DNA of 64,000 nucleotides, taken from positions 62,001-126,000 of the forward strand of contig FNEU01000005.1 in assembly GCA_900100245.1 (NCBI GenBank), in the 5' to 3' direction. Below are positions 24,852 to 39,984 of this stretch, piece by piece; the stretch's first letter is position 1, and the number at the start of each line of letters is the position of its first letter. The translations under genes and the position numbers were made by a program. A model generated the notes under the pieces. That model was not told the DNA's origin and made no database searches. It was given only the letters and a program-made list of their open reading frames with translations. This DNA is from Lachnospiraceae bacterium G41 (lineage in GTDB: Bacteria; Bacillota; Clostridia; Lachnospirales; Lachnospiraceae).

Positions 24852-24964
24852 AATAAGGGCAAACTATCCGAGAGGGTAGGACGCAAAGTTGTAAGCCTCA
24901 AAGTGTAAACGGAGGCGGTTTAACTGCAATCAGATAAGAATATCTTGTTTGGTTGCTTTTTTGT
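24852..24964 (+). ncRNA. Cyclic di-GMP-I (GEMM-I) riboswitch with intrinsic terminator
   Basis: The aptamer core is recognisable: AGGGCAAAC, a GAGA tetraloop hairpin (TATCC/GGGTA), then GGACGCAAAG, GCCTC and the pairing GAGGC about 15 bases later, in the order of the GEMM-I family. It is followed by an 11-bp G-U-rich stem (24926-24956) and TTTTTTGTTTT, an intrinsic terminator whose ascending arm lies next to the aptamer. This arrangement fits transcriptional control of the downstream gene by c-di-GMP; ON or OFF logic cannot be told without structure modelling. Confidence 0.88.
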
Positions 24965-25010
24965 TTTAAAAGGGAAAACGGGAATTAAAGGGTCATTGGA
25001 GGGGACGAAA

Positions 25011-28000
25011 ATGAAAAAAAGTGGAAGAAGAATTTTATCGTTTATCTTGACGGCAGTTATGACATTTGCGTTATTGCCGGTAATCGGTAATCCTATGGTT
25101 GTAAAAGCTGAGGATACACCAGCGGAGCATGTGGCGCATGATGAACAGTGTTCGGCAGAGGAAACTGACTGCAAATACCATAAAGATTGGACCAAGATAA
25201 GTACTTGGACGGAATTAAAGAGTCTTGGAGAAAAAGGCGGCAGCGGATATCTGGTAGATAATATTAAAATCTCTAATGCATTCAAGATAGAGTCGGGTAA
25301 AACAGTTAATTTATGTCTTAACGGTTTCAGTATAACTCAGACTGAGGATGTTTATACTATAACTGTTAATGGCACATTAAATTTGTATGATAAAAAAGGT
25401 AACTTAGGGATAATAACTCATGCTGATGGAAAGAATGGCATTGGAGTATTTAATTTAGGAACCTTTACAATGAACGGAGGAACAATATCAGGGAATAAAG
25501 CCACGGAAGGCGGTGGAGTAGTTAATTTAGGAACCTTTACAATGAACGGAGGAACAATCTCCGGGAATAACGCTGATTATGGCGGAGGAGTATCTAATAA
25601 AGGAACCTTCACAATGACCGAAGGAACAATCTCAGGGAATAAAGCTGATAGGGGCGGTGGAGTATTTAATGGTAATAAAAGAACCTTCACAATGAACGGG
25701 GGAACAATATCCGGGAATGAAGCTAAAGTTTATGGCGGTGGAGTATGTAATTATGGAACCTTCACAACGAACGGGGGAACAATATCCGGGAATGAAGCTA
25801 AAGGTTATGGCGGTGGAGTATATAATTCTTATGGAACCTTCACAATGAACGGAGGAACAATATCTGAGAATAAAGCTAAAACAGATGCAGACGACAATTC
25901 CTATGGCGGAGGAGTATATAATACTAAAACTTTTACAATGAATGGTGGAACAATATCCGGGAATGAAGCTAAAGGTTATGGCGGAGGAGTATATAATACT
26001 AATGAAGGAACCTTTACAATGAAGGGTGGAACAATATCGGAGAATAAAACTATACAAGAGGGAAAAAGCAATTCCTATGGCGGAGGAGTATCTAATAAAG
26101 GAACCTTCACAATGGAAGGTGGAACAATATCTAAGAATGCAGCTATACAAGAGGGAAAAGGCTATTCCTATGGCGGAGGAGTATCTAATAATAATGGGAC
26201 CTTCACAATGAAAGGGGGAACAATATCAGGGAATAACGCTACTTATTATGGCGGAGGAGTATTTAATCATAATAAAGGAACCTTCACAATGGAAGGTGGA
26301 ACAATATCAGGGAATAACGCTGATTATGGCGGTGGAGTATTTATTTATGAAGGAACCTTCACAATGAACGGGGGAACAATCTCAGAGAATAACGCTACTA
26401 ATTATGGCGGTGGAGTATTTAATCATAGTAAAGGAACCTTCACAATGACCGAAGGAACAATCTCAGGGAATGAAGCTGATTATGGCGGAGGAGTATATAA
26501 TTATTTAAAAGGAACCTTCACAATGAACGGGGGAACAATCTCAGGGAATAACGCTAATTATAATGGCGGTGGAGTAGAGAATTGGTATGGAACCTTCACA
26601 ATGACCGAAGGAACAATTAAGGATAATACAGCTTCTGGAAAAGGAAGCGGAGTATATATTACCCAAACTTTCGTAAAGGAAGGCGGAGAAATAGATGGTT
26701 CTATAGAATCTGTAAATGGTACCGCTTGTACTGTCACATTTAATCCAAATGGCGGATCTAATAATACAATTATTCAATATGTCGTTCCAAATGTGGATAC
26801 AAAACTTGCTCCAAATAAGTTTAGTTATGTGAATGATAGATTTAATTGCTGGAATACAGATTCTGAAGGAAATGGAAAACAATATCAGGATGAAGCCACA
26901 ATAAATATTAAAAGTGATTTAGTACTATATACTGAATTTTATAAAAAAATAAAATATAAGGTTCAGTTCGTAGTAAACAACGGCTCCTGGTCTGACGGAT
27001 TGACCTTAAATGAGGTTGAATACTGGAGATATGAAGACGAGGATGGAGTACTTTCTTTAAAAGCAGAAGATATTCCCACACCCGAAAATCCCAATAAAGG
27101 ATATAAAGCAGGAAGTTGGGATGCTGAACCTGAAACAGAAAAAGCAGTTTCAGAAGATCAAACAGATACATATACCTACACCTTCGCACCAATAGAATAC
27201 ACCATCAAATACGATTCCAACGGCGGAACCGGAAAAATGAATAATCAGAGCAGAACATACGATGATGAAATTGCTTTGACAGCCAATTCATTCACATATG
27301 AAGGCAAGACATTTAACGGATGGAATACTGAAGCTGACGGAAGCGGAAAAGATAATTATTCTGATGGAGAAATTGCCAATATTTCGAATAAAGACAATGA
27401 CACAGTGACTCTCTACGCACAGTGGACTACAGGTACTTTTACGATTTCATGGAAAAACTACGACGGAACAGTGCTTGAGACTGATAAGAATGTAGCTTAC
27501 GGCTCAACTCCTGCCTACGACGGAGAAACGCCTGTAAGAGCTAAAGAAGGCAACAAAGTATACACCTTCACAGGCTGGACGCCTGAAGTAGATACCGTAA
27601 AAGGTGCAGCTACATACACAGCAACCTACAGTGAAGAAGTTGTTGAGCAGACAGAACCTGAAACACCTCAGAATCCGACAGAACCTGAAACACCCGAAGA
27701 ACCCGAAGAAGAAATTCCCGAAAAAGACTGGCTCGATGATTTAAGACTTGCACTTAACATTGCAGCTGAGCCCGATAGTGAAAAGACGGTGGAATACAGC
27801 GGTGATTTTGCACTTCCTTACGAGATAATGAATTTCCTCGTAAATCATCCTGACATCACATTCGTTTATCATGTAACCTACGAAGGCCAAGAATATACAA
27901 TCACAATTCCTGCAGGCAAGGCAGTTGCTTATGCCGACACCCCTTGGTACGGACCTTTGTGGCTGCTTGCCAACTATGGCGGTAACAACGCACCCACAGG

Positions 28001-28151
28001 TGCTAAAGGAAACGGAACCTATATTGTAAAGGCAGGAGATACGCTTACAGGAATCTCTGTAAGGCTTGGAGTAACGATTCAGTATCTTGTAGACAAGAAC
28101 GGAATTAAGAATCCTGATTACATCGTAGAAGGTCAGGAATTAATCTACTAA
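25011..28151 (+). CDS. Secreted beta-helix/InlB-repeat/LysM surface protein
   Basis: It starts at MKKSGRRILSF with GGAGGGG upstream; the longer frame would begin inside the riboswitch terminator. After a signal peptide (cut after about VVKA) and about 100 residues, 15 imperfect repeats of GTFTMNGGTISGN...GGGV follow (residues about 145-550), typical of right-handed parallel beta-helix/polymorphic adhesin folds. Then come Listeria-Bacteroides/InlB-type domains (YTIKYDSNGGTG, TLYAQWT), a Pro/Glu linker, an unknown domain, and a C-terminal LysM domain (YIVKAGDTLTGISVRLGVTI) for cell-wall binding. The 1046-residue protein is likely a wall-bound adhesin under c-di-GMP control. Confidence 0.88.
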   Translation: MKKSGRRILSFILTAVMTFALLPVIGNPMVVKAEDTPAEHVAHDEQCSAEETDCKYHKDWTKISTWTELKSLGEKGGSGYLVDNIKISNAFKIESGKTVNLCLNGFSITQTEDVYTITVNGTLNLYDKKGNLGIITHADGKNGIGVFNLGTFTMNGGTISGNKATEGGGVVNLGTFTMNGGTISGNNADYGGGVSNKGTFTMTEGTISGNKADRGGGVFNGNKRTFTMNGGTISGNEAKVYGGGVCNYGTFTTNGGTISGNEAKGYGGGVYNSYGTFTMNGGTISENKAKTDADDNSYGGGVYNTKTFTMNGGTISGNEAKGYGGGVYNTNEGTFTMKGGTISENKTIQEGKSNSYGGGVSNKGTFTMEGGTISKNAAIQEGKGYSYGGGVSNNNGTFTMKGGTISGNNATYYGGGVFNHNKGTFTMEGGTISGNNADYGGGVFIYEGTFTMNGGTISENNATNYGGGVFNHSKGTFTMTEGTISGNEADYGGGVYNYLKGTFTMNGGTISGNNANYNGGGVENWYGTFTMTEGTIKDNTASGKGSGVYITQTFVKEGGEIDGSIESVNGTACTVTFNPNGGSNNTIIQYVVPNVDTKLAPNKFSYVNDRFNCWNTDSEGNGKQYQDEATINIKSDLVLYTEFYKKIKYKVQFVVNNGSWSDGLTLNEVEYWRYEDEDGVLSLKAEDIPTPENPNKGYKAGSWDAEPETEKAVSEDQTDTYTYTFAPIEYTIKYDSNGGTGKMNNQSRTYDDEIALTANSFTYEGKTFNGWNTEADGSGKDNYSDGEIANISNKDNDTVTLYAQWTTGTFTISWKNYDGTVLETDKNVAYGSTPAYDGETPVRAKEGNKVYTFTGWTPEVDTVKGAATYTATYSEEVVEQTEPETPQNPTEPETPEEPEEEIPEKDWLDDLRLALNIAAEPDSEKTVEYSGDFALPYEIMNFLVNHPDITFVYHVTYEGQEYTITIPAGKAVAYADTPWYGPLWLLANYGGNNAPTGAKGNGTYIVKAGDTLTGISVRLGVTIQYLVDKNGIKNPDYIVEGQELIY
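25459..26660 (+). repeat. Fifteen in-frame 72-96-bp repeats inside the surface protein gene
   Basis: Near-identical blocks such as GGAACCTTCACAATGAACGG recur, each encoding one beta-helix coil. High DNA identity makes copy-number change by recombination likely. Confidence 0.9.
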
Positions 28152-29484: not shown

Positions 29485-30219
29485 ATGAAAAATAGTAGAA
29501 GAAGAAAAAATAAAATGATAGAAGAAATCTGCTCAGCAGGTTCTTCTATTACCATGCTTGCGATTCTCTATCTAAGCTTTAAATATCGCGAACACTGGCA
29601 AGTGGTTACCATTGGAGTGGCAGTATTTCTTATATGCCTATTGATACTTGTTTTCTTAATTACTCGAATTATCAGAAAGAAAAGAATTGAGAAAGCAATG
29701 GTAACGCAAAACTATGATTCAATGTCTGGGGAAGATTTTGAAGAGTTTTGTGCAGACATTCTTCGTGGAAATGGTTTTTCCGATGTAGAAGTAACAAAAG
29801 CCTCTGGTGATCATGGTGTAGATGTTCTTGCGAAGAAAGACGGAGTAAAATATGCAATTCAATGTAAAAGATATTCAAAACCCGTCGGAAATAAAGCTGT
29901 TCAAGAAGTCTATTCCGGAAAAGATATTTATAAAGCGGATGTTGCTGTTGTAATGTCTAACATGGACTTTACAGCTCAGGCAATTGAAGATGCAAAGAAA
30001 TTAAAAGTTGAATTGTGGAACAGAGAAAAGATTTATTCATTACAGAAAGCGGGAAATAAAGAAATAGTTCCGACACCTGTAAAAGAAAATGCTTTAGTAT
30101 GTCCAAATTGTGGCGGAGATTTAGTTTTTAGAACTGCGAAGAAAGGTCCTAATGCAGGGAGTCAGTTCTACGGATGTTCTAATTATCCGAATTGTAAATA
30201 TACTCGCTCAATAAACTAG
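29485..30219 (+). CDS. Membrane-anchored Mrr-like restriction endonuclease with zinc ribbon
   Basis: The 244-residue protein has two N-terminal hydrophobic segments (about 15-28 and 35-58), an Mrr_cat PD-(D/E)XK domain (about 75-175) with MSGEDFEEFCADIL, GDHGVDVLAK (catalytic Asp) and YAIQCKRY (Q-x-K), and a C-terminal topoisomerase-type four-cysteine zinc ribbon (CPNCGGDL...CSNYPNCKY). Mrr nucleases cut modified or foreign DNA. The same fold with membrane anchor is also known from solitary proteins of unknown role. It is coupled to a membrane protein upstream. Confidence 0.85.
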   Translation: MKNSRRRKNKMIEEICSAGSSITMLAILYLSFKYREHWQVVTIGVAVFLICLLILVFLITRIIRKKRIEKAMVTQNYDSMSGEDFEEFCADILRGNGFSDVEVTKASGDHGVDVLAKKDGVKYAIQCKRYSKPVGNKAVQEVYSGKDIYKADVAVVMSNMDFTAQAIEDAKKLKVELWNREKIYSLQKAGNKEIVPTPVKENALVCPNCGGDLVFRTAKKGPNAGSQFYGCSNYPNCKYTRSIN

Positions 30220-31174: not shown

Positions 31175-31213
31175 TTTATTCTTTTCTGAAATTATAAATG
31201 ATAATTGGAAATG

Positions 31214-31255
31214 GTTACGATTTGCTTAGTAAGGAAGTAAATCGTAACTTTTTTA
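31214..31255 (+). terminator. Intrinsic terminator
   Basis: GTTACGATTT pairs perfectly with AAATCGTAAC and is followed by six T residues. It separates the nuclease unit from the helicase operon. Confidence 0.85.
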
Positions 31256-31274
31256 ATTTAGTTGAGGTGTCAAA

Positions 31275-31296
31275 GATGTGGCATATTTGTTATAAT
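31275..31296 (+). promoter_or_regulatory. Promoter of the helicase operon
   Basis: TATAAT at 31291-31296 is preceded by TTTGT (extended -10) and a weak TGTCAA -35 17 bases earlier. The helicase ATG follows 33 bases later. Confidence 0.5.
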
Positions 31297-31328
31297 ATTA
31301 TAAATGCAACAACAACGAGATTATAACC

Positions 31329-34300
31329 ATGAATAATATTAGTGATTTACGCCGAGGATTTGAAACAGCTTTTATAGACGGTTCTGTAGTTTCCGATCCT
31401 TTGTGTACACCGCAATTTGTATCTAACAATTACAAAGAAGGAAAGAAAGTTTTCTCATCCATAGAGGATGAGCTTTTGTCGTGCGATCAATTCTTTATTA
31501 GTGTAGCATTTATTACTTTTGGCGGAATTGAACCTTTATTGCTTACGTTAAGGGAACTTGAGAGAAAAGGGGTAAAGGGCCAGATTCTCACAACGAATTA
31601 TTTATATTTCAGTGAGCCGAAAGCATTAGAAAAACTTAGCGAGTTATCTAATATTTCTTTGAAAATGTATGATGTTGAACAAGCGGAAGAAGGCTTCCAC
31701 ACTAAAGGATACATTTTTAAGCATGAAGAGATTTACAGAATCATAATCGGCAGTTCCAACATGACTAAAACAGCGTTAACAACCAACCGTGAATGGAACA
31801 CAAAGATTATTTCGACTGAGCAAGGTAATATAGCTCAGGAGATCATAAAAGAGTACAGAGAACTCTGGTCGTCGCAATATGCGTATGACTTCGAAGAATT
31901 TTATGAGAATTACAAAGAGAAGTTTAAGATTATCAAGCATCAGCGTGAGATTGCAAGACAGGATGAGATAACTTCTCTTGAAAAATATAGACTTAAACCT
32001 AATAGTATGCAGGTTGGTTTTATTTCAAACTTGCGCAAGATAATTGCAGCAGGCGGAGAACGTGCGTTATTGATTTCAGCAACCGGTACCGGAAAGACGT
32101 ATGCGTCTGCTTTTGCTATGCGTGAACTTGGCTTTAAACGTGTTTTGTTTTTAGTTCACAGAGGCCAGCTCGCAAGACAAACCAAGAAATCATATGAGAG
32201 AGTATTTAACAAGAGTGTTTCGATGGGACTAGTCGGTGCAGGTCACAGCGAATACGACAAAGATTATGTATTTGCAACTGTTCAGACCCTTAATCGTGAT
32301 ACTCATCTTTTTGAGTATAAACCCGAAGAATTTGATTGTATTATCTTGGATGAAGCACATCATTCTTCAGCTAATACATACCAGAAAGTAATGAGTTATT
32401 TTAAACCTAAATTATGGCTTGGTATGACTGCAACTCCTGATAAAAGAGACGACAGTATTGAGGGAAGAAATATCTATGAAATTTTCGACTATAGGATTGC
32501 ATATGAAATAAGACTTCAGCAGGCTATGGAAGAAAATATGCTTTGCCCGTTCCATTATTTTGGCATCAGCGATTTAGCAGTGATTGGCGATGAACAAATC
32601 AAAACCAGACAGTTATCATCAAAGGATTTTGCGTTATTAACTTCGGACGAAAGAGTTAAACATATCGTAAAAGAAGCGACATATTTTGGATATAGCGGAG
32701 ATAAAGTTAAAGGCTTGATATTCTGCTCAAGAATAGATGAATCTGAAGAGCTTTCAAGGAAACTAAATGCTACGATTAACCCTGAAACAGGAAAGCCTTT
32801 CAGAACGATTTCTTTAAATGGTAGTGCAAACGAAGAAGAAAGACAGCAGGCTTTCGAAAGACTCGCTGTTGATGAAAATGATGAAAGAGTATTAAAAGGT
32901 GAAATAAGTCCTTTAGACTATATTCTTTCTGTTGAAATTTTAAATGAAGGCGTTGATATTGTTGAAGTAAATCAGGTAATAATGTTGCGCCCTACAGAGT
33001 CACCCATAGTGTTTATCCAGCAGCTCGGACGTGGATTAAGAAAAGCAGAAGGAAAAGAGTTTGTAGTTATCCTCGATTTTATCGGAAATTATAATAATAA
33101 CTTCATGATTCCGATTGCTTTGTCGGGAGACAGATCCTATAACAAAGACAACATTCGAAGATATGTTATGGAAGGCGGAAGGGTTATTCCCGGAGCATCC
33201 ACTATCCATTTCGATGAGATAAGCAGAAAGCGTATTTTTGCTTCTGTTGATAATGCGAATTTCAGTGATGTCAAACTCATAAAAGAAAACTATACAAACC
33301 TTAAAAACAAGATTGGCCGTATTCCTGCATTAAAAGATTTTGATGATTATGGTGAAATGGATGTCTTGAGAATATTTGATAATAATAGTTTGGGTTCATA
33401 TTACAAATTCCTGGTTAAATATGAAAAGGAATATACCATTCGTCTCTCAGAAGATGAAGGGAAGATTGTTGAATTCATTTCCAAGAAGCTGGCCAGCGGA
33501 AAGAGAATACAGGAACTTGAATTATTAAAGCGAATTCTCGCATATTCTAAAGGCCTGTCAGATATCGGATTGTTTGAAGGATTATCCAAAGATTTGCAGA
33601 AATACGGTAAGGCCTTAAGTGCAAATCTGAAAGACAATTTAGTCAATATAATGACCAATGAGTTTTCATCAGGTTCAGGAAAAAAGACTTACGAAAAATG
33701 TATTTTTATTGAAGAAAATAAAGGCGATTATTTCCCCTCAGAATTGTTTGTTTCACTTCTCAAAAATGAAGATTTCTACAACATAGTTAAGGAACTTGTT
33801 GATTTTGGAATTAGCAGATTTGAAAGAGATTATAAGAACACATATAAGAAAACAGATTTAGTTTTATATCAAAAATATACATACGAAGATGTATGCAGAT
33901 TGCTTAACTGGGAAAACAGTGAAGTGCCTTTAAATATCGGCGGTTATAAGTATGATAAAAAGACCAAAACCTTCCCTGTTTTTATCAACTATGATAAGGC
34001 TGAAGACATTAGCGATACCACGAGATATGAGGATCATTTTACAAGCCGCCAAACCCTTATAGCAATTTCAAAATCAGGTCGTAGTATGCAGTCCGAAGAT
34101 GTTCAGAATTTCCTTAAAGCAAAGGAAAGAGGAATACAGGTTGAATTGTTTGTTCGTAAGAATAAAGATGATAAAATTTCTAAGGAATTTTATTATTTGG
34201 GACATATGAACAGCAATGGAAATGCGAAAGAATTTATGATGCCTAATACTGATAAGAGTGCCGTCGAAATTGAATGGATTCTTGAAGAACCTGTAAGAGA

Positions 34301-34331
34301 AGATATTTACGAATATATCGTTAATGCATAA
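31329..34331 (+). CDS. PLD-nuclease/SF2 helicase/DUF3427 protein
   Basis: The 1000-residue protein has an N-terminal phospholipase-D-like domain with HTKGYIF (about residue 125) and GSSNMTKTAL, an SF2 helicase core with Walker A ATGTGKT (about 250), DEAH (about 340), MTATPDKRDD and QQLGRGLRK (about 563), and a C-terminal DUF3427 region (about 830-1000). This domain set is found in a recurrent helicase family seen in defence islands and next to NUDIX genes. One PLD motif suggests dimerisation for nuclease activity. It starts a four-gene unit with tight spacing. Function is inferred as DNA repair or defence. Confidence 0.88.
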   Translation: MNNISDLRRGFETAFIDGSVVSDPLCTPQFVSNNYKEGKKVFSSIEDELLSCDQFFISVAFITFGGIEPLLLTLRELERKGVKGQILTTNYLYFSEPKALEKLSELSNISLKMYDVEQAEEGFHTKGYIFKHEEIYRIIIGSSNMTKTALTTNREWNTKIISTEQGNIAQEIIKEYRELWSSQYAYDFEEFYENYKEKFKIIKHQREIARQDEITSLEKYRLKPNSMQVGFISNLRKIIAAGGERALLISATGTGKTYASAFAMRELGFKRVLFLVHRGQLARQTKKSYERVFNKSVSMGLVGAGHSEYDKDYVFATVQTLNRDTHLFEYKPEEFDCIILDEAHHSSANTYQKVMSYFKPKLWLGMTATPDKRDDSIEGRNIYEIFDYRIAYEIRLQQAMEENMLCPFHYFGISDLAVIGDEQIKTRQLSSKDFALLTSDERVKHIVKEATYFGYSGDKVKGLIFCSRIDESEELSRKLNATINPETGKPFRTISLNGSANEEERQQAFERLAVDENDERVLKGEISPLDYILSVEILNEGVDIVEVNQVIMLRPTESPIVFIQQLGRGLRKAEGKEFVVILDFIGNYNNNFMIPIALSGDRSYNKDNIRRYVMEGGRVIPGASTIHFDEISRKRIFASVDNANFSDVKLIKENYTNLKNKIGRIPALKDFDDYGEMDVLRIFDNNSLGSYYKFLVKYEKEYTIRLSEDEGKIVEFISKKLASGKRIQELELLKRILAYSKGLSDIGLFEGLSKDLQKYGKALSANLKDNLVNIMTNEFSSGSGKKTYEKCIFIEENKGDYFPSELFVSLLKNEDFYNIVKELVDFGISRFERDYKNTYKKTDLVLYQKYTYEDVCRLLNWENSEVPLNIGGYKYDKKTKTFPVFINYDKAEDISDTTRYEDHFTSRQTLIAISKSGRSMQSEDVQNFLKAKERGIQVELFVRKNKDDKISKEFYYLGHMNSNGNAKEFMMPNTDKSAVEIEWILEEPVREDIYEYIVNA

Positions 34332-34347
34332 TTTTTTGGAGTTTATC

Positions 34348-34920
34348 ATGGAGATTTTTACAGTTGAACAAATAACAGAAGCTGATTACGGTTGTGAGGA
34401 AACAGATAGAAAAGAGCCGACAGCACTTCTTAAATTAAGTTCAAAAGAAAGCGAAAAGTTTGTTGAGGTTTCAGAAGCTGAACTTGAGAAGAAAGGTATT
34501 GCTGAAGGAAAGAAAGTTATCATAACAAGTGATGGCAAAGTATTAAAGTATGTTCGTGTAGTAGCAGCAGTTATCAAGGATGGAGATAAGATATTTGCTA
34601 CGGCAAGAGGATATGGCGAATTTAAAGGCTGGTGGGAATTCCCCGGAGGAAAAATTGAAAAAGGAGAGACACCTCAGCAGGCACTTGTTCGTGAGATTAA
34701 AGAAGAACTTTCTGCAACTATAGAAGTAGACGAATTAATTTACACTATTGAGTATGATTACCCCACGTTCCATCTTTCGATGGATTGCTTCTGGGCAAAG
34801 CTTGTTGAAGGCGAATTAATTTTGAAAGAGGCTGAAGCAGCCAAGTGGTTATCTAAGGACGAACTGCTTTCGGTAAATTGGTTGCCGGCCGATAAAGATT
34901 TGATTCAATTTCTTTTATGA
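34348..34920 (+). CDS. NUDIX hydrolase (MutT-like) with N-terminal extension
   Basis: The start MEIFTVEQI has GGAG upstream; an in-frame ATG eight codons earlier overlaps the helicase stop. The NUDIX box GGKIEKGETPQQALVREIKEEL (split as GGKIEKGE and REIKEEL) is complete, at about residues 105-127, with preceding GWWEFPGG. An extension of about 70 residues precedes the domain. MutT-like enzymes hydrolyse oxidised or modified nucleoside triphosphates. The gene is 16 bases after the helicase. Confidence 0.88.
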   Translation: MEIFTVEQITEADYGCEETDRKEPTALLKLSSKESEKFVEVSEAELEKKGIAEGKKVIITSDGKVLKYVRVVAAVIKDGDKIFATARGYGEFKGWWEFPGGKIEKGETPQQALVREIKEELSATIEVDELIYTIEYDYPTFHLSMDCFWAKLVEGELILKEAEAAKWLSKDELLSVNWLPADKDLIQFLL

Positions 34921-34930
34921 GGAAAAAAAC

Positions 34931-35392
34931 ATGTGCTTAATTTGCGACAGAATTGAAATGATTAAGAACGTAACTAATCCGTATTTTGTGAAAGAGCTTG
35001 AAACGGGTTATGTTGTCATTGGCGACAACCAGCATTTCTATGGTTATGCGCTCTTTTTATATAAGAATCATAATTATACCGAATTGTTCCAGTTAGATAT
35101 GCCTGAACGTCTCAAATTTATGGAGGAAATGTCCATTGTGGCTGAGGCTGCATCGAAGGCTTTCGGACCGGAGAAAATGAACTATGAATTGCTGGGAATG
35201 GACGATGCTCATCTTCACTGGCATTTGTATCCCAGAAGAAAAGGCGATATAGGAAATTACGGCAATAATGGCGTGGGACCTGTATGGTGTCTTCCTTTTG
35301 ATAAGATTTATGATGATTCAAACCGTCCTTCACCCGAAGAACTTGAGAAGATGAAAGATGCTTTAAGAACTGAACTGGAGAAGCTTTTATAA
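34931..35392 (+). CDS. HIT-family nucleotide hydrolase/transferase
   Basis: The 153-residue protein has the histidine triad H-L-H-W-H-L (about residue 95-100, in DAHLHWHLYPRR) and the CLICDRIE start with two cysteines typical of HIT proteins that bind zinc. HIT enzymes hydrolyse dinucleoside polyphosphates or AMP-lysine type bonds. AGGA sits before the ATG, 10 bases after the NUDIX stop. Its place in a helicase-NUDIX-HIT-HD row suggests nucleotide clean-up tied to the helicase. Confidence 0.88.
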   Translation: MCLICDRIEMIKNVTNPYFVKELETGYVVIGDNQHFYGYALFLYKNHNYTELFQLDMPERLKFMEEMSIVAEAASKAFGPEKMNYELLGMDDAHLHWHLYPRRKGDIGNYGNNGVGPVWCLPFDKIYDDSNRPSPEELEKMKDALRTELEKLL

Positions 35393-35405
35393 GCGTAGTG
35401 AATAT

Positions 35406-35990
35406 ATGTATCCGACTAGAGAAGAAGCTGAAATTTTATTAATAGATGCGGCAAAATGCAATCCCGGCGCTTGGGTTGGGCACAGCAAAACTGCTGCGCA
35501 CTGTGCGGAGAGAATAGCGTTTTACACAGGGATGGATTCTGAGAAAGCTTATGTATTAGGACTCCTGCATGATATAGGACGAAAGTTCGGAGTAAGCTAC
35601 ATGAGGCATATTTCCGACGGCTATACTTATATGATGTCCTTGGGCTTCGATGACGCAGCGCGAATCTGTCTTACGCATTCCTTTTACGGCACAGATATAG
35701 GAACCTATGTGGGAAAGACTGACACGAGCGAAGAAGAAACGGAAATGATCCGTACGAAACTTGCGGAAACCGTGCAGGATGAATATGATGAACTGATTCA
35801 GTTCGTGGATTCAATCGCGGGCACGGAAGGCGTGATGGATATTATCGATCGCATGGATGACGTTAAGAGTCGCTACGGTTCATACAATCCCGGAATGCGG
35901 GAAAACAATTTAAGACTCAAAGACTTTTATGAGCAAAAGATGGGAATGGATTTGTACGTGGCAGTTGATAAAGATAATTACAGACCGTGA
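35406..35990 (+). CDS. HD-domain phosphohydrolase
   Basis: The 194-residue protein has the H...HD...D metal site: VGHSKTAAHCAERIA (first His), LLHDIGRKFG (HD, about residues 55-64), and a later CLTHSFYG. It fits small HD-domain phosphohydrolases acting on nucleotides or phosphoesters. It starts 13 bases after the HIT gene stop with a weak ribosome site, so it is likely coupled. Substrate unknown. Confidence 0.85.
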   Translation: MYPTREEAEILLIDAAKCNPGAWVGHSKTAAHCAERIAFYTGMDSEKAYVLGLLHDIGRKFGVSYMRHISDGYTYMMSLGFDDAARICLTHSFYGTDIGTYVGKTDTSEEETEMIRTKLAETVQDEYDELIQFVDSIAGTEGVMDIIDRMDDVKSRYGSYNPGMRENNLRLKDFYEQKMGMDLYVAVDKDNYRP

Positions 35991-36050
35991 GTAGTACAAT
36001 AAGTTAAAAATACCTAACCTAATTCATCTAAACTTTGTCAAAAATGTCCT

Positions 36051-36474: not shown

Positions 36475-37542
36475 TTAGGAGATATTGTAATCGTTTCCTT
36501 TTATCATTTTATCTATTACCGGATGGATCAAATTTGTGTCCAAGATAGCATTAATAGCACACAGTTTTTTTCCTGCATCCTTACTGGATGCTCCGCAATG
36601 GAATACCTTTTCTGATTTGCACCCATAATCCAAAACTATTAATCTGTCATGACAATCTGTATTATGTTTAAGTTTCATTGACGGATACTGATTTTGAAAA
36701 TCATCTACCACCGCTTTTGTCAAAAAGCCTTGGTTTCCAAATCCGTTTTCTGTAAATAGTATTACATTTACTCCCTTTTTCTTTTGTGAAAGCAATTGTA
36801 AAGTTTTCGTATTTACATAATCATCAACAACATAAATACTCTTCTTTGCTTTTTGATAAATGTCTATATATGCTGCATCTGCTTCAAATTTCTGACCTTT
36901 ATAAATAACAAAATTCTTATAATCATCCTTTAAAACAAAATTCTCATTTATTGAATCAATTTGTTTTTGTATTTTATCTAAAGCCACTTCTGTTTTTGTT
37001 TTATGATCATCAAGGCCGGCAACTTGAATCGAAAGTTCGGTTATTCTAACATCCAAAAGATTTAAGTCCGCATTGGAGATAAACTGTTGGTTCCTCCTGA
37101 TGTAATGACGCATTTCTTTAAATGCACGCATAATATAAATGCTTTGTTGAACAGCCAAATCACCTTTTAATACCGACGCGAGCATATAGATACCCTGTTC
37201 GGAAAAAGCATACGGATTATATTTTATATTTTTACCTTTAATATTTTCCTCATACAAAGTCACAAATTGTGACCTTGTAGTTATGCCTTGTTTTTCTTGA
37301 TATGAAATCTGCTCCCGAATCATTCGGATATCTTCTTTTGTGGTTTTAAATCTGAAATCTTCAGGAAACCTTTCTATATTTCGTTTAACTTGCTGATTTA
37401 ATGCTTTGACCTCGTATCCGTAAAAAATTGCCAAATCACAATCAAGCATTACAGGTTTACCCTGTAAAATAAAAACGCATTTTCTTATATCTTCTGAAGA
37501 TAATGATAGAATAATCTGATTTTTTTCTGTTTCATCTCTCAT
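36475..37542 (-). CDS. ORF6N DNA-binding protein with C-terminal PLD-like domain
   Basis: The 355-residue protein has an N-terminal ORF6N domain (about 15-100; VMLDCDLAIFYGYEVKALNQ, RFPEDFRF) as in KilA-type phage proteins. A middle coiled segment follows (about 165-200) and then a domain of about 150 residues with DCHDRLIVLDYG and HCGASSKDAGKK, which has the shape of a phospholipase-D-like or nuclease-related active site. ORF6N proteins are usually phage or defence-associated. It follows an XRE gene by 20 bases and belongs to its operon. It is AT-rich relative to surrounding genes, a hint of transfer. Confidence 0.75.
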   Translation of the reverse strand: MRDETEKNQIILSLSSEDIRKCVFILQGKPVMLDCDLAIFYGYEVKALNQQVKRNIERFPEDFRFKTTKEDIRMIREQISYQEKQGITTRSQFVTLYEENIKGKNIKYNPYAFSEQGIYMLASVLKGDLAVQQSIYIMRAFKEMRHYIRRNQQFISNADLNLLDVRITELSIQVAGLDDHKTKTEVALDKIQKQIDSINENFVLKDDYKNFVIYKGQKFEADAAYIDIYQKAKKSIYVVDDYVNTKTLQLLSQKKKGVNVILFTENGFGNQGFLTKAVVDDFQNQYPSMKLKHNTDCHDRLIVLDYGCKSEKVFHCGASSKDAGKKLCAINAILDTNLIHPVIDKMIKGNDYNIS

Positions 37543-39342: not shown

Positions 39343-39984
39343 CTACAACTGCGAATATCCGAAGCCGTTTACCAGGGCTTCGAGCTTCTGCCCTTTGGCG
39401 CACATAGGGCAGTTTTCTCTCGAATAATAGCCGTAGTTTGGAAGGTCGGAGGAAGTGAAGATTGATTTTACTTCGATGCCGGCACATTTGGAGACTGCAG
39501 AGAATATTGCTGCGATGCCGCCTACGGTTCCACCGTAGTAAACTACCGAGTCGATTGCCTGGAGAATGGTCTTACCGGATGTGATGGAGTCGGTCAGAAT
39601 CAGTACGTTCATGCCTTCCACCATACGGATTTTGTTGTCACGGAAAATCATCTGTCCCATCGAGTTTACTTCGGGAGTGATGACCGAAATATTGTTACCA
39701 AAACTAAGACATGTTTTATAACTGTGCGAGAGCTCCTCAGCGAGGAAAGCTCCGATTACTTCCGTTTCATCGAGGCATACAATGGTATCCACAGCGAAGG
39801 ATAGCATATAGTCTTCTGCGAGAGCCTTTGCGGAAACGGATGCGTTGTTCTGTCTGCATTTTACAGTGGACATATCGATATAAGTATTGATGTGTGAGTT
39901 CTGGGTGGCGAAATGCCCCTGCATGATTTTGATTCGTGCTTCTCTGTAGTTGGAAGAGCGCAAATCCACTAGTCTTTCATCCAT
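39343..39984 (-). CDS. Orotate phosphoribosyltransferase-like protein
   Basis: The 213-residue protein has a type I PRTase fold; the PRPP-binding motif lies in VLILTDSITSGKTILQAID (about residues 128-146), with the acidic D and TSGKT loop. The N-terminus resembles small PyrE-related proteins found in Clostridia that lack the usual OMP-decarboxylase neighbour. Two cysteines in ENCPMCAKG near the C-terminus suggest a metal site. A GGGGG site precedes the ATG. It is a stand-alone gene and may act on a base other than orotate. Confidence 0.75.
   Translation of the reverse strand: MDERLVDLRSSNYREARIKIMQGHFATQNSHINTYIDMSTVKCRQNNASVSAKALAEDYMLSFAVDTIVCLDETEVIGAFLAEELSHSYKTCLSFGNNISVITPEVNSMGQMIFRDNKIRMVEGMNVLILTDSITSGKTILQAIDSVVYYGGTVGGIAAIFSAVSKCAGIEVKSIFTSSDLPNYGYYSRENCPMCAKGQKLEALVNGFGYSQL

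What the first reader, a model, noticed from the sequence alone, without database searches (positions are those of the whole stretch)
31329..35990. PLD-helicase-DUF3427 with NUDIX, HIT and HD enzymes as one operon
Four genes with gaps of only 10-16 bases combine a nuclease-like helicase with three classes of nucleotide hydrolases. Helicase/NUDIX pairs exist, but a full helicase-NUDIX-HIT-HD set looks undescribed to me. It could degrade modified DNA and clear modified nucleotides, or act as a nucleotide-depleting defence system. It has its own promoter and follows a nuclease unit.
Basis: partly seen in the sequence, partly recalled or inferred. Interest (0 to 1): 0.7.

Follow-up and report, generated by a model that had tools for sequence, protein, structure and literature searches.

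The report
Methylated-DNA cutter with nucleotide-cleaning partner
The four genes are real, but only the first two form a conserved unit: an enzyme of the kind that shreds DNA carrying methylated cytosine, and a small enzyme that probably destroys the matching methylated building blocks so that the cell's own DNA stays unmarked or a phage cannot use them.

Summary
The helicase is a full-length homologue of SauUSI, the m5C/hm5C-dependent Type IV restriction enzyme; DUF3427 is SauUSI's coupler plus SRA reader. Neighbourhood statistics split the set. NUDIX is the helicase's usual partner: 49 of 52 evaluable loci of the window's family, 68 of 72 named loci (overlapping sets), 53 of 61 loci by unbiased clustering (next neighbour 10 of 61). 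A NUDIX gene of the same group lies directly upstream of SauUSI in a Staphylococcus aureus record and of homologues in lactobacilli and Hymenobacter. HIT and HD are not partners: 0 of 60 loci; the full set was found in three of 31 genomes of the genus. The NUDIX's best solved match is 3GWY, measured to hydrolyse 5-methyl-dCTP and 5-hydroxymethyl-dCTP, the nucleotides of the bases SauUSI reads; in a tree it falls among SauUSI-linked NUDIX proteins. I infer that the NUDIX clears modified cytosine triphosphates, protecting the host from self-restriction or starving modified phages. Bell et al. 2020 noted MutT homologues beside SauUSI homologues; my searches found no proposed function.

The parts
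31213..31249 (+). terminator-like hairpin (15 pairs, T tail) that separates the upstream Mrr-nuclease unit
   Evidence: consensus match only
31267..31296 (+). promoter-like site, GTGTCA-18-TATAAT with extended -10 TG
   Evidence: consensus match only
31329..34331 (+). SauUSI-type Type IV restriction enzyme: PLD nuclease, SF2 ATPase, coupler and SRA-type reader (DUF3427)
   Evidence: PADLOC mREase_IV PDLC03658 676 bits over 5-999; PDB 7clg (SauUSI) 656.6 bits over 4-999; Pfam
34348..34920 (+). NUDIX hydrolase with a 65-residue N-terminal extension; predicted 5-methyl/5-hydroxymethyl-dCTP pyrophosphatase, usual partner of the restriction enzyme
   Evidence: PADLOC PDC-S07 157.7 bits; best PDB match 3gwy 93.5 bits and best fold match; neighbourhood counts
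34931..35392 (+). HIT-family hydrolase; lineage-specific passenger
   Evidence: Pfam; not conserved with the helicase
35406..35990 (+). HD/HDIG-family phosphohydrolase; lineage-specific passenger
   Evidence: Pfam; not conserved with the helicase

Best explanation
Genes 1 and 2 are a two-gene restriction unit. Gene 1 is a SauUSI-type Type IV restriction enzyme: its C-terminal SRA-like domain finds 5-methyl- or 5-hydroxymethylcytosine in incoming DNA, the SF2 motor translocates, and the dimeric PLD nuclease shreds the DNA (inferred by full-length homology to a characterised enzyme). Gene 2 hydrolyses the matching free nucleotides, 5-methyl-dCTP and 5-hydroxymethyl-dCTP, to the monophosphate (inferred). 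This keeps marks recycled from destroyed or turned-over DNA out of the host chromosome, where they would make it a target of gene 1, and can at the same time starve phages that build their DNA from such nucleotides. HIT and HD are local additions in three sister species and not needed by the unit. Shown here: homology, motifs, gene order, conservation of the pair, non-conservation of HIT and HD. Inferred: substrate, purpose, co-transcription.
For: Gene 1: PADLOC mREase_IV 676 bits full length; 7CLG, the SauUSI structure, 656.6 bits over 4-999; HxK, P-loop, DEAH and motif VI kept; pocket residues equivalent to Y831, F841, I842 and D858 kept. Pairing: NUDIX downstream within 3 kb in 49 of 52 (set A) and 68 of 72 (set B) evaluable loci; the sets overlap; within 200 nt in 38 of 52 and in 63 of 72 taking the nearest hit or 56 of 72 taking the best-scoring hit. 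Blind clustering: NUDIX in 53 of 61 loci, next neighbour in 10 of 61. Order reversed (NUDIX upstream) in S. aureus, L. plantarum, L. curvatus, Hymenobacter and L212, L216, L218, L219. Substrate: best PDB match 3GWY by sequence (93.5 against 72.8 bits for the next) and fold; 3GWY = Q5LBB1 has kcat/Km 4.8e6 (5-Me-dCTP) and 4.4e6 (5-MeOH-dCTP) M-1 s-1 (PMC5158307). 3GWY groups with NUDIX genes upstream of SauUSI-type genes. Residue 182 is Asp in 60 of 60 linked and 21 of 21 further rows, as in NudG and 3GWY; MutT has Asn. Relatives of this NUDIX sit beside other 5-methylcytosine systems: McrBC-like genes in G007, C5-methylase with HaeIII-type or MutH-like enzyme, HNH genes one of which matches PADLOC mREase_IV, and one is fused to Vsr in Collinsella.
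Against: No activity was tested. E. coli MutT outscores E. coli NudG as a PDB match of P0002 (65.7 against 56.1 bits), and neither the NCBIfam MutT nor the NudG equivalog cut-off is reached. Asp at position 182 is also in 3hhj, a 'MutT'. Of 12 SauUSI-type genes of the phylum survey only 6 have the NUDIX nearby; of 11 plasmid-collection records with the helicase, 6 show no NUDIX match at all. Several of the 20 relatives without a helicase have no restriction gene recognised next to them, and neither do 12 of the 18 Bacteroidales places, so the NUDIX also lives alone. The residue equivalent to SauUSI E126 is Lys, and M829 and W868 are not kept (Ile and Ala), so the exact modification read may differ. 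The S. aureus record is irregular (see full report). Operon structure was not tested.
Confidence: 0.62

Rival explanations
1. Four-gene system: helicase, NUDIX, HIT and HD act together to destroy modified DNA and its nucleotides (NUDIX to monophosphate, HD or HIT onwards).
For: In three sister species the four genes are one colinear block (window 31285-36016 at about 90% DNA identity in G014 and G017) with gaps of 10-16 nt in the window. A HIT gene lies 1.5 kb upstream of the NUDIX gene in Hymenobacter, next to a gene annotated HNH; an HD relative lies about 2 kb downstream of the helicase in L308 and a HIT relative 6.6 kb downstream in L299.
Against: 0 of 60 loci of set A carry a HIT or HD relative. 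In the family HIT is in 21 of 397 and HD in 39 of 397 genomes; no listed place adjoins a helicase place (which searched 250 genomes), and 11 further HIT or HD places fetched with flanks show no helicase. HIT-HD occurs with no helicase match in G007, with 6.7 kb between it and the NUDIX. The HD gene is closer to that of G007 (97.4%) than to those of G014/G017 (91.8, 92.8%), so the pieces move separately.
Confidence: 0.1
2. The NUDIX is a MutT-like 8-oxo-dGTP cleaner that protects DNA in general; its place beside restriction genes reflects defence-island clustering only.
For: It is related to MutT (TIGR00586 90 bits, just under the 97.9 cut-off), and relatives beside SauUSI homologues in Streptococcus are called MutT homologues (PMC7641849).
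Against: Clustering alone does not explain one neighbour in 53 of 61 loci with the next in 10, nor both gene orders in two phyla. MutT's Asn119 is Asp in 81 of 81 rows. The closest measured enzyme is a 5-Me-dCTPase.
Confidence: 0.2
3. The NUDIX acts chiefly as an anti-phage nucleotide-depletion arm against phages that make hydroxymethyl- or methyl-dCTP, not as self-protection.
For: 3GWY hydrolyses 5-hydroxymethyl-dCTP as well as 5-methyl-dCTP. SauUSI also cuts 5hmC DNA (stated in PMC7913695).
Against: NUDIX relatives also sit with ordinary m5C R-M genes (HaeIII type) and fused to Vsr, which points to the host's own 5-methylcytosine rather than to phage pools.
Confidence: 0.25

Closest known systems
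SauUSI (Type IV restriction enzyme of S. aureus; PDB 7CLG)
   Same: Domain order, full-length alignment 4-999 against 5-953, HxK, P-loop, DEAH, four residues of the SRA pocket; a NUDIX gene of the same group 13 nt before the SauUSI match in a S. aureus record
   Different: About 39.5% identity (S. aureus record); residues equivalent to E126, M829 and W868 differ; NUDIX is downstream instead of upstream
Q5LBB1_BACFN (PDB 3GWY), 5-Me-dCTP / 5-MeOH-dCTP pyrophosphatase
   Same: Best sequence and fold match of the NUDIX (43% in the fold alignment), Asp182, YP.F...M stretch
   Different: Window protein carries a 65-residue N-terminal extension; own activity unmeasured; gene context of Q5LBB1 could not be looked up
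PADLOC candidate PDC-S07
   Same: The window NUDIX (157.7 bits), S. aureus (183.6) and Hymenobacter (160.5) NUDIX all match
   Different: Listed as PDC (candidate) with no description; the table gives no function or partner
E. coli NudG (Orf135)
   Same: NUDIX fold, Asp at the MutT Asn119 column; 5-methyl-dCTP is its better substrate in a table of PMC5158307 (passage)
   Different: Lower score than MutT against P0002; outside the linked clade in the tree
McrBC-type Type IV genes with NUDIX (G007)
   Same: About 89% identical NUDIX after MrcB_N-AAA and DUF2357-PDDEXK_7 genes and a C5-methylase
   Different: Different restriction enzyme; one small ORF between; no helicase of this type matched in that genome

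Membership tests
SauUSI-type Type IV restriction enzymes (P0001) | full-length homology to SauUSI | tested here: met
   7CLG 656.6 bits 4-999; PDLC03658 676 bits
SauUSI-type Type IV restriction enzymes (P0001) | PLD nuclease motif H(x)K(x)4E of SauUSI (PMC7913695) | tested here: inconclusive
   H124 and K126 present and invariant in 11 of 11 aligned rows; the column of E126 is Lys here and variable
SauUSI-type Type IV restriction enzymes (P0001) | SF2 ATPase motifs (GTGKT, DEAH, QQLGRGLR) | tested here: met
SauUSI-type Type IV restriction enzymes (P0001) | coupler plus SRA reader with m5C pocket Y831, F841, I842, D858, W868 and inserting M829 (PMC7913695) | tested here: inconclusive
   DUF3427 304 bits; Y831, F841, I842, D858 kept; M829 is Ile; W868 is Ala here and in 63 of 81 near rows, Trp in 8 of 10 far rows (L280 and L284 gave no row)
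SauUSI-type Type IV restriction enzymes (P0001) | ATP-dependent cleavage of m5C/hm5C DNA | not testable with these tools
   needs purified protein
5-methyl-dCTP pyrophosphatases (3GWY/NudG-like) (P0002) | complete NUDIX box | tested here: met
   G101, E107, R115, E116, E119, E120 invariant in 60 of 60 and 21 of 21 rows
5-methyl-dCTP pyrophosphatases (3GWY/NudG-like) (P0002) | closer to the measured 5-Me-dCTPase 3GWY than to MutT | tested here: met
   3gwy 93.5 bits, 1mut (MutT) 65.7, 2rrk (NudG) 56.1; tree (rooted on MutT by choice, short alignment)
5-methyl-dCTP pyrophosphatases (3GWY/NudG-like) (P0002) | hydrolysis of 5-Me-dCTP | not testable with these tools
   enzyme assay needed
MutT (8-oxo-dGTP diphosphatase) (P0002) | Asn at the MutT position 119 column (role of this residue recalled) | tested here: not met
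   Asp in 81 of 81 rows; TIGR00586 90 bits, under cut-off 97.9
helicase-NUDIX-HIT-HD four-gene system (reader) | HIT and HD conserved with the helicase | tested here: not met
   0 of 60 loci; full block in 3 of 31 genomes of the genus

The most novel reading that the evidence does not exclude
Enzymes that attack 5-methylcytosine DNA are coupled to a dedicated NUDIX enzyme that removes 5-methyl- and 5-hydroxymethyl-dCTP, as a general rule that holds for SauUSI itself, many of its relatives in two phyla, McrBC-like and HNH Type IV enzymes, and some m5C restriction-modification genes. Type IV immunity would then need 'mark hygiene': clearing the free nucleotide so that the host never writes the forbidden mark into its own DNA, and denying it to phages. 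The 65-residue N-terminal extension of the window's NUDIX and the local HIT-HD pair would be elaborations of this.
Probability: 0.45. Interest if true: 0.8.

Novelty: new variant of a known kind. Interest (0 to 1): 0.6.

Why it matters
SauUSI is described as a major barrier to gene transfer into S. aureus (PMC7913695, abstract) and as active as a single polypeptide (PMC3874153, passages). If its usual neighbour hydrolyses exactly the nucleotides of the bases that SauUSI reads, then how Type IV enzymes avoid autoimmunity, and whether they also starve modified phages, becomes a two-gene biochemical test. It would give a function to PADLOC candidate PDC-S07 and to genes now called MutT, and could help in transforming rumen and gut Lachnospiraceae.

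Tried and rejected
(1) Four-gene system: rejected on neighbourhood counts (see rivals). (2) Mrr nuclease unit 29485-30219 as part of the set: rejected, absent from the colinear block in G014 and G017. (3) My first survey looked only downstream and scored all ten far SauUSI-type genes of the phylum set as lacking NUDIX; after the S. aureus record I repeated it in both directions with four more NUDIX queries, which raised the phylum set from 2 to 6 of 12. (4) HIT and HD function from context: flanks of 6 HIT and 6 HD relatives showed no recurrent neighbour by eye; left unresolved. (5) The context of the B. fragilis gene for 3GWY: not found among 247 Bacteroidales genomes (17 with a match, best 54% identity). 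Of 18 places fetched, the two nearest to 3GWY lie beside PLD helicases (L338 a SauUSI-type gene directly downstream, L337 a more distant one), two lie beside C5-methylase-like and two beside SLFN-like ORFs judged by eye; in the other 12 no such direct neighbour was recognised. (6) The second, more distant PLD-helicase type (L223-L230): NUDIX directly beside it in 1 of 8 and at 2.4 kb in another; not pursued. (7) Literature: SauUSI with nudix gave one paper with no link between the two words in the passages shown; nudix, 'type IV restriction' and 5-methylcytosine gave none; SauUSI with MutT/pyrophosphohydrolase gave PMC7641849, whose Fig. 9 legend says that small proteins beside SauUSI homologues are MutT homologues. 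PMC3141236 (the SauUSI discovery paper) is not held. Other searches, of which I saw listings only unless cited elsewhere.


Full report
WHAT IS THERE. A promoter-like site (31267-31296) follows a terminator-like hairpin (31213-31249). The window lies in a 2.59-Mb genome, completeness 99.7%. The nearest named relatives of its helicase are Lachnospiraceae, many of them from rumen; I take the window's family to be this one.

THE HELICASE IS A SAUUSI-TYPE TYPE IV RESTRICTION ENZYME. PADLOC's mREase_IV model PDLC03658 matches residues 5-999 with 676 bits. Against the PDB the best hit is 7CLG at 656.6 bits over 4-999, which is the deposited SauUSI structure (PMC7913695, section 29). In that paper (abstract and sections 24, 25 and 29 read) the N-terminal PLD domain is the dimeric nuclease, the SF2 ATPase translocates, and the C-terminal region is a coupler plus an SRA-fold reader of 5-methylcytosine. 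This explains DUF3427. The window protein keeps H124/K126 (SauUSI H119/K121), the P-loop, DEAH and QQLGRGLR motifs, and the pocket residues equivalent to Y831, F841, I842 and D858. It differs at E126 (Lys), M829 (Ile) and W868 (Ala). Ala at 868 is found in 63 of 81 near rows, Trp in 8 of 10 distant rows (two loci, L280 and L284, gave no row), so the modification read may be shifted in this clade.

NEIGHBOURHOOD STATISTICS. In 250 genomes of the family, 79 have a match to the helicase at E <= 1e-60. I fetched 60 of its places with flanks (most of the distant 30-35% matches and the smallest pieces were left out). With the 3' end and at least 700 nt downstream present, 52 are evaluable: 49 have a NUDIX match on the same strand within 3 kb downstream, 38 within 200 nt. 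HIT or HD relatives: 0 of 60. In 80 named loci from a separate collection (the best 80 of 568, partly the same genomes), 72 are evaluable and 68 have the NUDIX within 3 kb; within 200 nt it is 63 by nearest hit or 56 by best-scoring hit. The four without are L281, L282, L293, L309. One has a HIT relative 6.6 kb away (L299, Enterococcus cecorum) and one an HD relative about 2 kb away (L308). Clustering all ORFs of 61 loci without prior choice gives NUDIX in 53 loci and the next neighbour in 10.

THE PAIR IS WIDER THAN THIS CLADE, BUT NOT OBLIGATORY. In a phylum-wide sample of 299 genomes, DUF3427 occurs in 36. I fetched 20 of its 37 listed places: of the 12 SauUSI-type genes (L211-L222), 6 have the NUDIX, 2 downstream and 4 upstream. 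Among 11 plasmid-collection records with the helicase I opened four (S. aureus, L. plantarum, L. curvatus, Hymenobacter canadensis). All four have the NUDIX directly upstream; a fifth, L. fermentum, has both matches about 950 nt apart, the helicase match lacking its first 283 residues. The six others (Fusobacterium, Peptoclostridium, Acetoanaerobium, two Pseudoalteromonas, Arthrobacter) were not opened and show no NUDIX match. The S. aureus record (NZ_CP077890) is irregular: labelled plasmid, linear, 30 kb, with an inverted second copy of the NUDIX and helicase stretch, and its helicase gene does not read through. Its C-terminal stretch is 100% identical to SauUSI over 142 residues, and NUDIX lies upstream in both copies. 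Its NUDIX protein has the sequence of PDB 5x1x. The two gene orders argue that selection keeps the genes together.

HIT AND HD. In the genus, 6 of 31 genomes have a HIT match and 9 of 31 the helicase. The full block is in three: the window's genome, G014 and G017. G022 and G008 have the helicase at 92 and 90% with a NUDIX but no HIT or HD in the fetched stretch. G007 has HIT and HD at 97% and a NUDIX at about 89%, but no helicase match: there the NUDIX follows a C5-methylase, an MrcB_N-AAA gene and a DUF2357-PDDEXK_7 gene, with one small ORF between, and the HIT-HD pair lies 6.7 kb further on, before the same gene that flanks the window's island at 39343-39984. So within one genus the same NUDIX is found with two different kinds of modification-dependent restriction enzyme, and HIT-HD occurs apart from both. 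In 397 family genomes HIT is in 21 and HD in 39. The helicase was searched in 250 family genomes, and no listed HIT or HD place other than the window's adjoins a helicase place there; 11 HIT or HD places fetched with flanks show no helicase. HIT-HD is therefore best read as a passenger; a local accessory role in three species cannot be excluded.

WHAT THE NUDIX DOES. Its best PDB match is 3GWY (93.5 bits; next 72.8; MutT 65.7; NudG 56.1). A confident model (mean pLDDT 93.9) has 3GWY as its best two fold matches; MutT2 with 5mdCTP bound is eighth. 3GWY is Q5LBB1_BACFN, measured at kcat/Km 4.8e6 for 5-Me-dCTP and 4.4e6 M-1 s-1 for 5-MeOH-dCTP, cleaving mainly the alpha-beta bond (PMC5158307, passages and section 18 read). 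SauUSI reads 5-methyl- and 5-hydroxymethylcytosine. In a 98-tip tree 3GWY falls with NUDIX genes that lie upstream of SauUSI-type genes (L218, L219, Hymenobacter; supports 0.81-0.86), within a larger group of linked and related NUDIX proteins (0.96) that leaves out NudG, 3hhj and MutT; the alignment is short and the root (MutT) was my choice. The column of MutT Asn119 is Asp in 60 of 60 linked rows (59 of 65 linked loci gave a usable row, plus the window) and 21 of 21 others, as in NudG and 3GWY but also 3hhj. That this column contacts the base is recalled knowledge. Relatives without the helicase are found after a C5-methylase with a HaeIII-type enzyme (L195), a C5-methylase with a MutH-like enzyme (L182), HNH genes (L181, L183; L183 matches PADLOC mREase_IV), SLFN-type helicases (L186, L192), and with no restriction gene recognised in others of the 20 loci. 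Two of the 20 turned out to carry pieces of a helicase of this kind (L188, L189). In Collinsella a NUDIX of this group is fused to Vsr, the endonuclease for T:G mismatches at deaminated 5-methylcytosine (the Vsr role is recalled). Together this points to 5-methylcytosine nucleotides as the substrate.

MECHANISM AND LIMITS. The most likely purpose is mark hygiene: destruction or turnover of modified DNA releases modified monophosphates; if re-phosphorylated and incorporated, they would mark the host for its own restriction enzyme. Starving phages that use such triphosphates is a second purpose that the same chemistry would serve. I could not measure anything. The NUDIX is also found alone, MutT outscores NudG as a relative, and half of the phylum-wide SauUSI-type genes examined lack the neighbour, so the link is strong but not obligatory.

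PRIOR ART. Bell et al. 2020 (PMC7641849, passages and section 11 read) state in a figure legend that small proteins beside SauUSI homologues in Streptococcus are MutT homologues. PADLOC lists the NUDIX as PDC-S07. Searches for SauUSI with nudix, SauUSI with MutT or pyrophosphohydrolase, and nudix with Type IV restriction and 5-methylcytosine gave no proposal of this function; most subscription papers are not held. The gene-1 family is known; the pairing was seen in passing; the functional coupling to 5-methyl-dCTP hydrolysis appears unproposed in what I could search.

Noticed in passing
L173, L174, L175, L060 (G001 contig C6, about 260349-316315): A 56-kb prophage (terminase, portal, capsid, three serine recombinases) sits inside a SauUSI-type gene, at the GATGAG of the DEAH codons, and carries two C5-cytosine methylase genes and a Vsr gene. 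A phage coding for cytosine methylases thus seems to use, and break, the gene that would restrict its modified DNA.
   Followed up: partly
L070 (G101), L091 (G227), L093 (G037): The same kind of element end abuts codon 340/341 of the helicase gene in three more genomes; recombinase-like ORFs (by eye) are next to it in L070 and L091, and an HpaII-type enzyme with C5-methylase in L093.
   Followed up: partly
L278, L092, L310, L259: A second junction type breaks the helicase gene just before the P-loop codons, with a serine recombinase nearby in L278: two of the most conserved motifs of the restriction gene look like integration targets.
   Followed up: no
L313:5028-6017 (Collinsella aerofaciens): One protein joins a NUDIX domain of this group to a Vsr endonuclease domain.
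   Followed up: partly
L041:2035-3963; L312:6898-8978: A MazG-like pyrophosphohydrolase next to a helicase gene (GIY-YIG/SLFN type in L041) recurs beside the pair (MazG family in 6 and helicase family in 5 of 61 loci; also in L. plantarum).
   Followed up: no
window 34348-34540: The NUDIX has a 65-residue N-terminal extension predicted as a small beta-rich domain; 8 of 72 NUDIX ORFs from the named loci were over 165 aa with such a start. Function unknown.
   Followed up: partly
window 24945-28151: A 1068-aa surface-type protein with many near-identical repeats of the kind GTFTMNGGTISGN, ending in a LysM-like stretch (LysM by eye).
   Followed up: no
window 36475-37542 (-): An ORF6N-domain protein matching PADLOC candidate PDC-S05 (335 bits), next to an HTH regulator, lies just after the block; the window's defence island seems to go on.
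   Followed up: no
L157 against window: Helicase 92% identical but its NUDIX only 63% identical to the window's: the NUDIX gene seems to be exchanged faster than the enzyme it accompanies.
   Followed up: no
L318 (NZ_CP077890, S. aureus): The record holds an inverted second copy of the NUDIX and SauUSI stretch, and the SauUSI gene does not read through; it looks like a misassembly or a damaged copy.
   Followed up: partly
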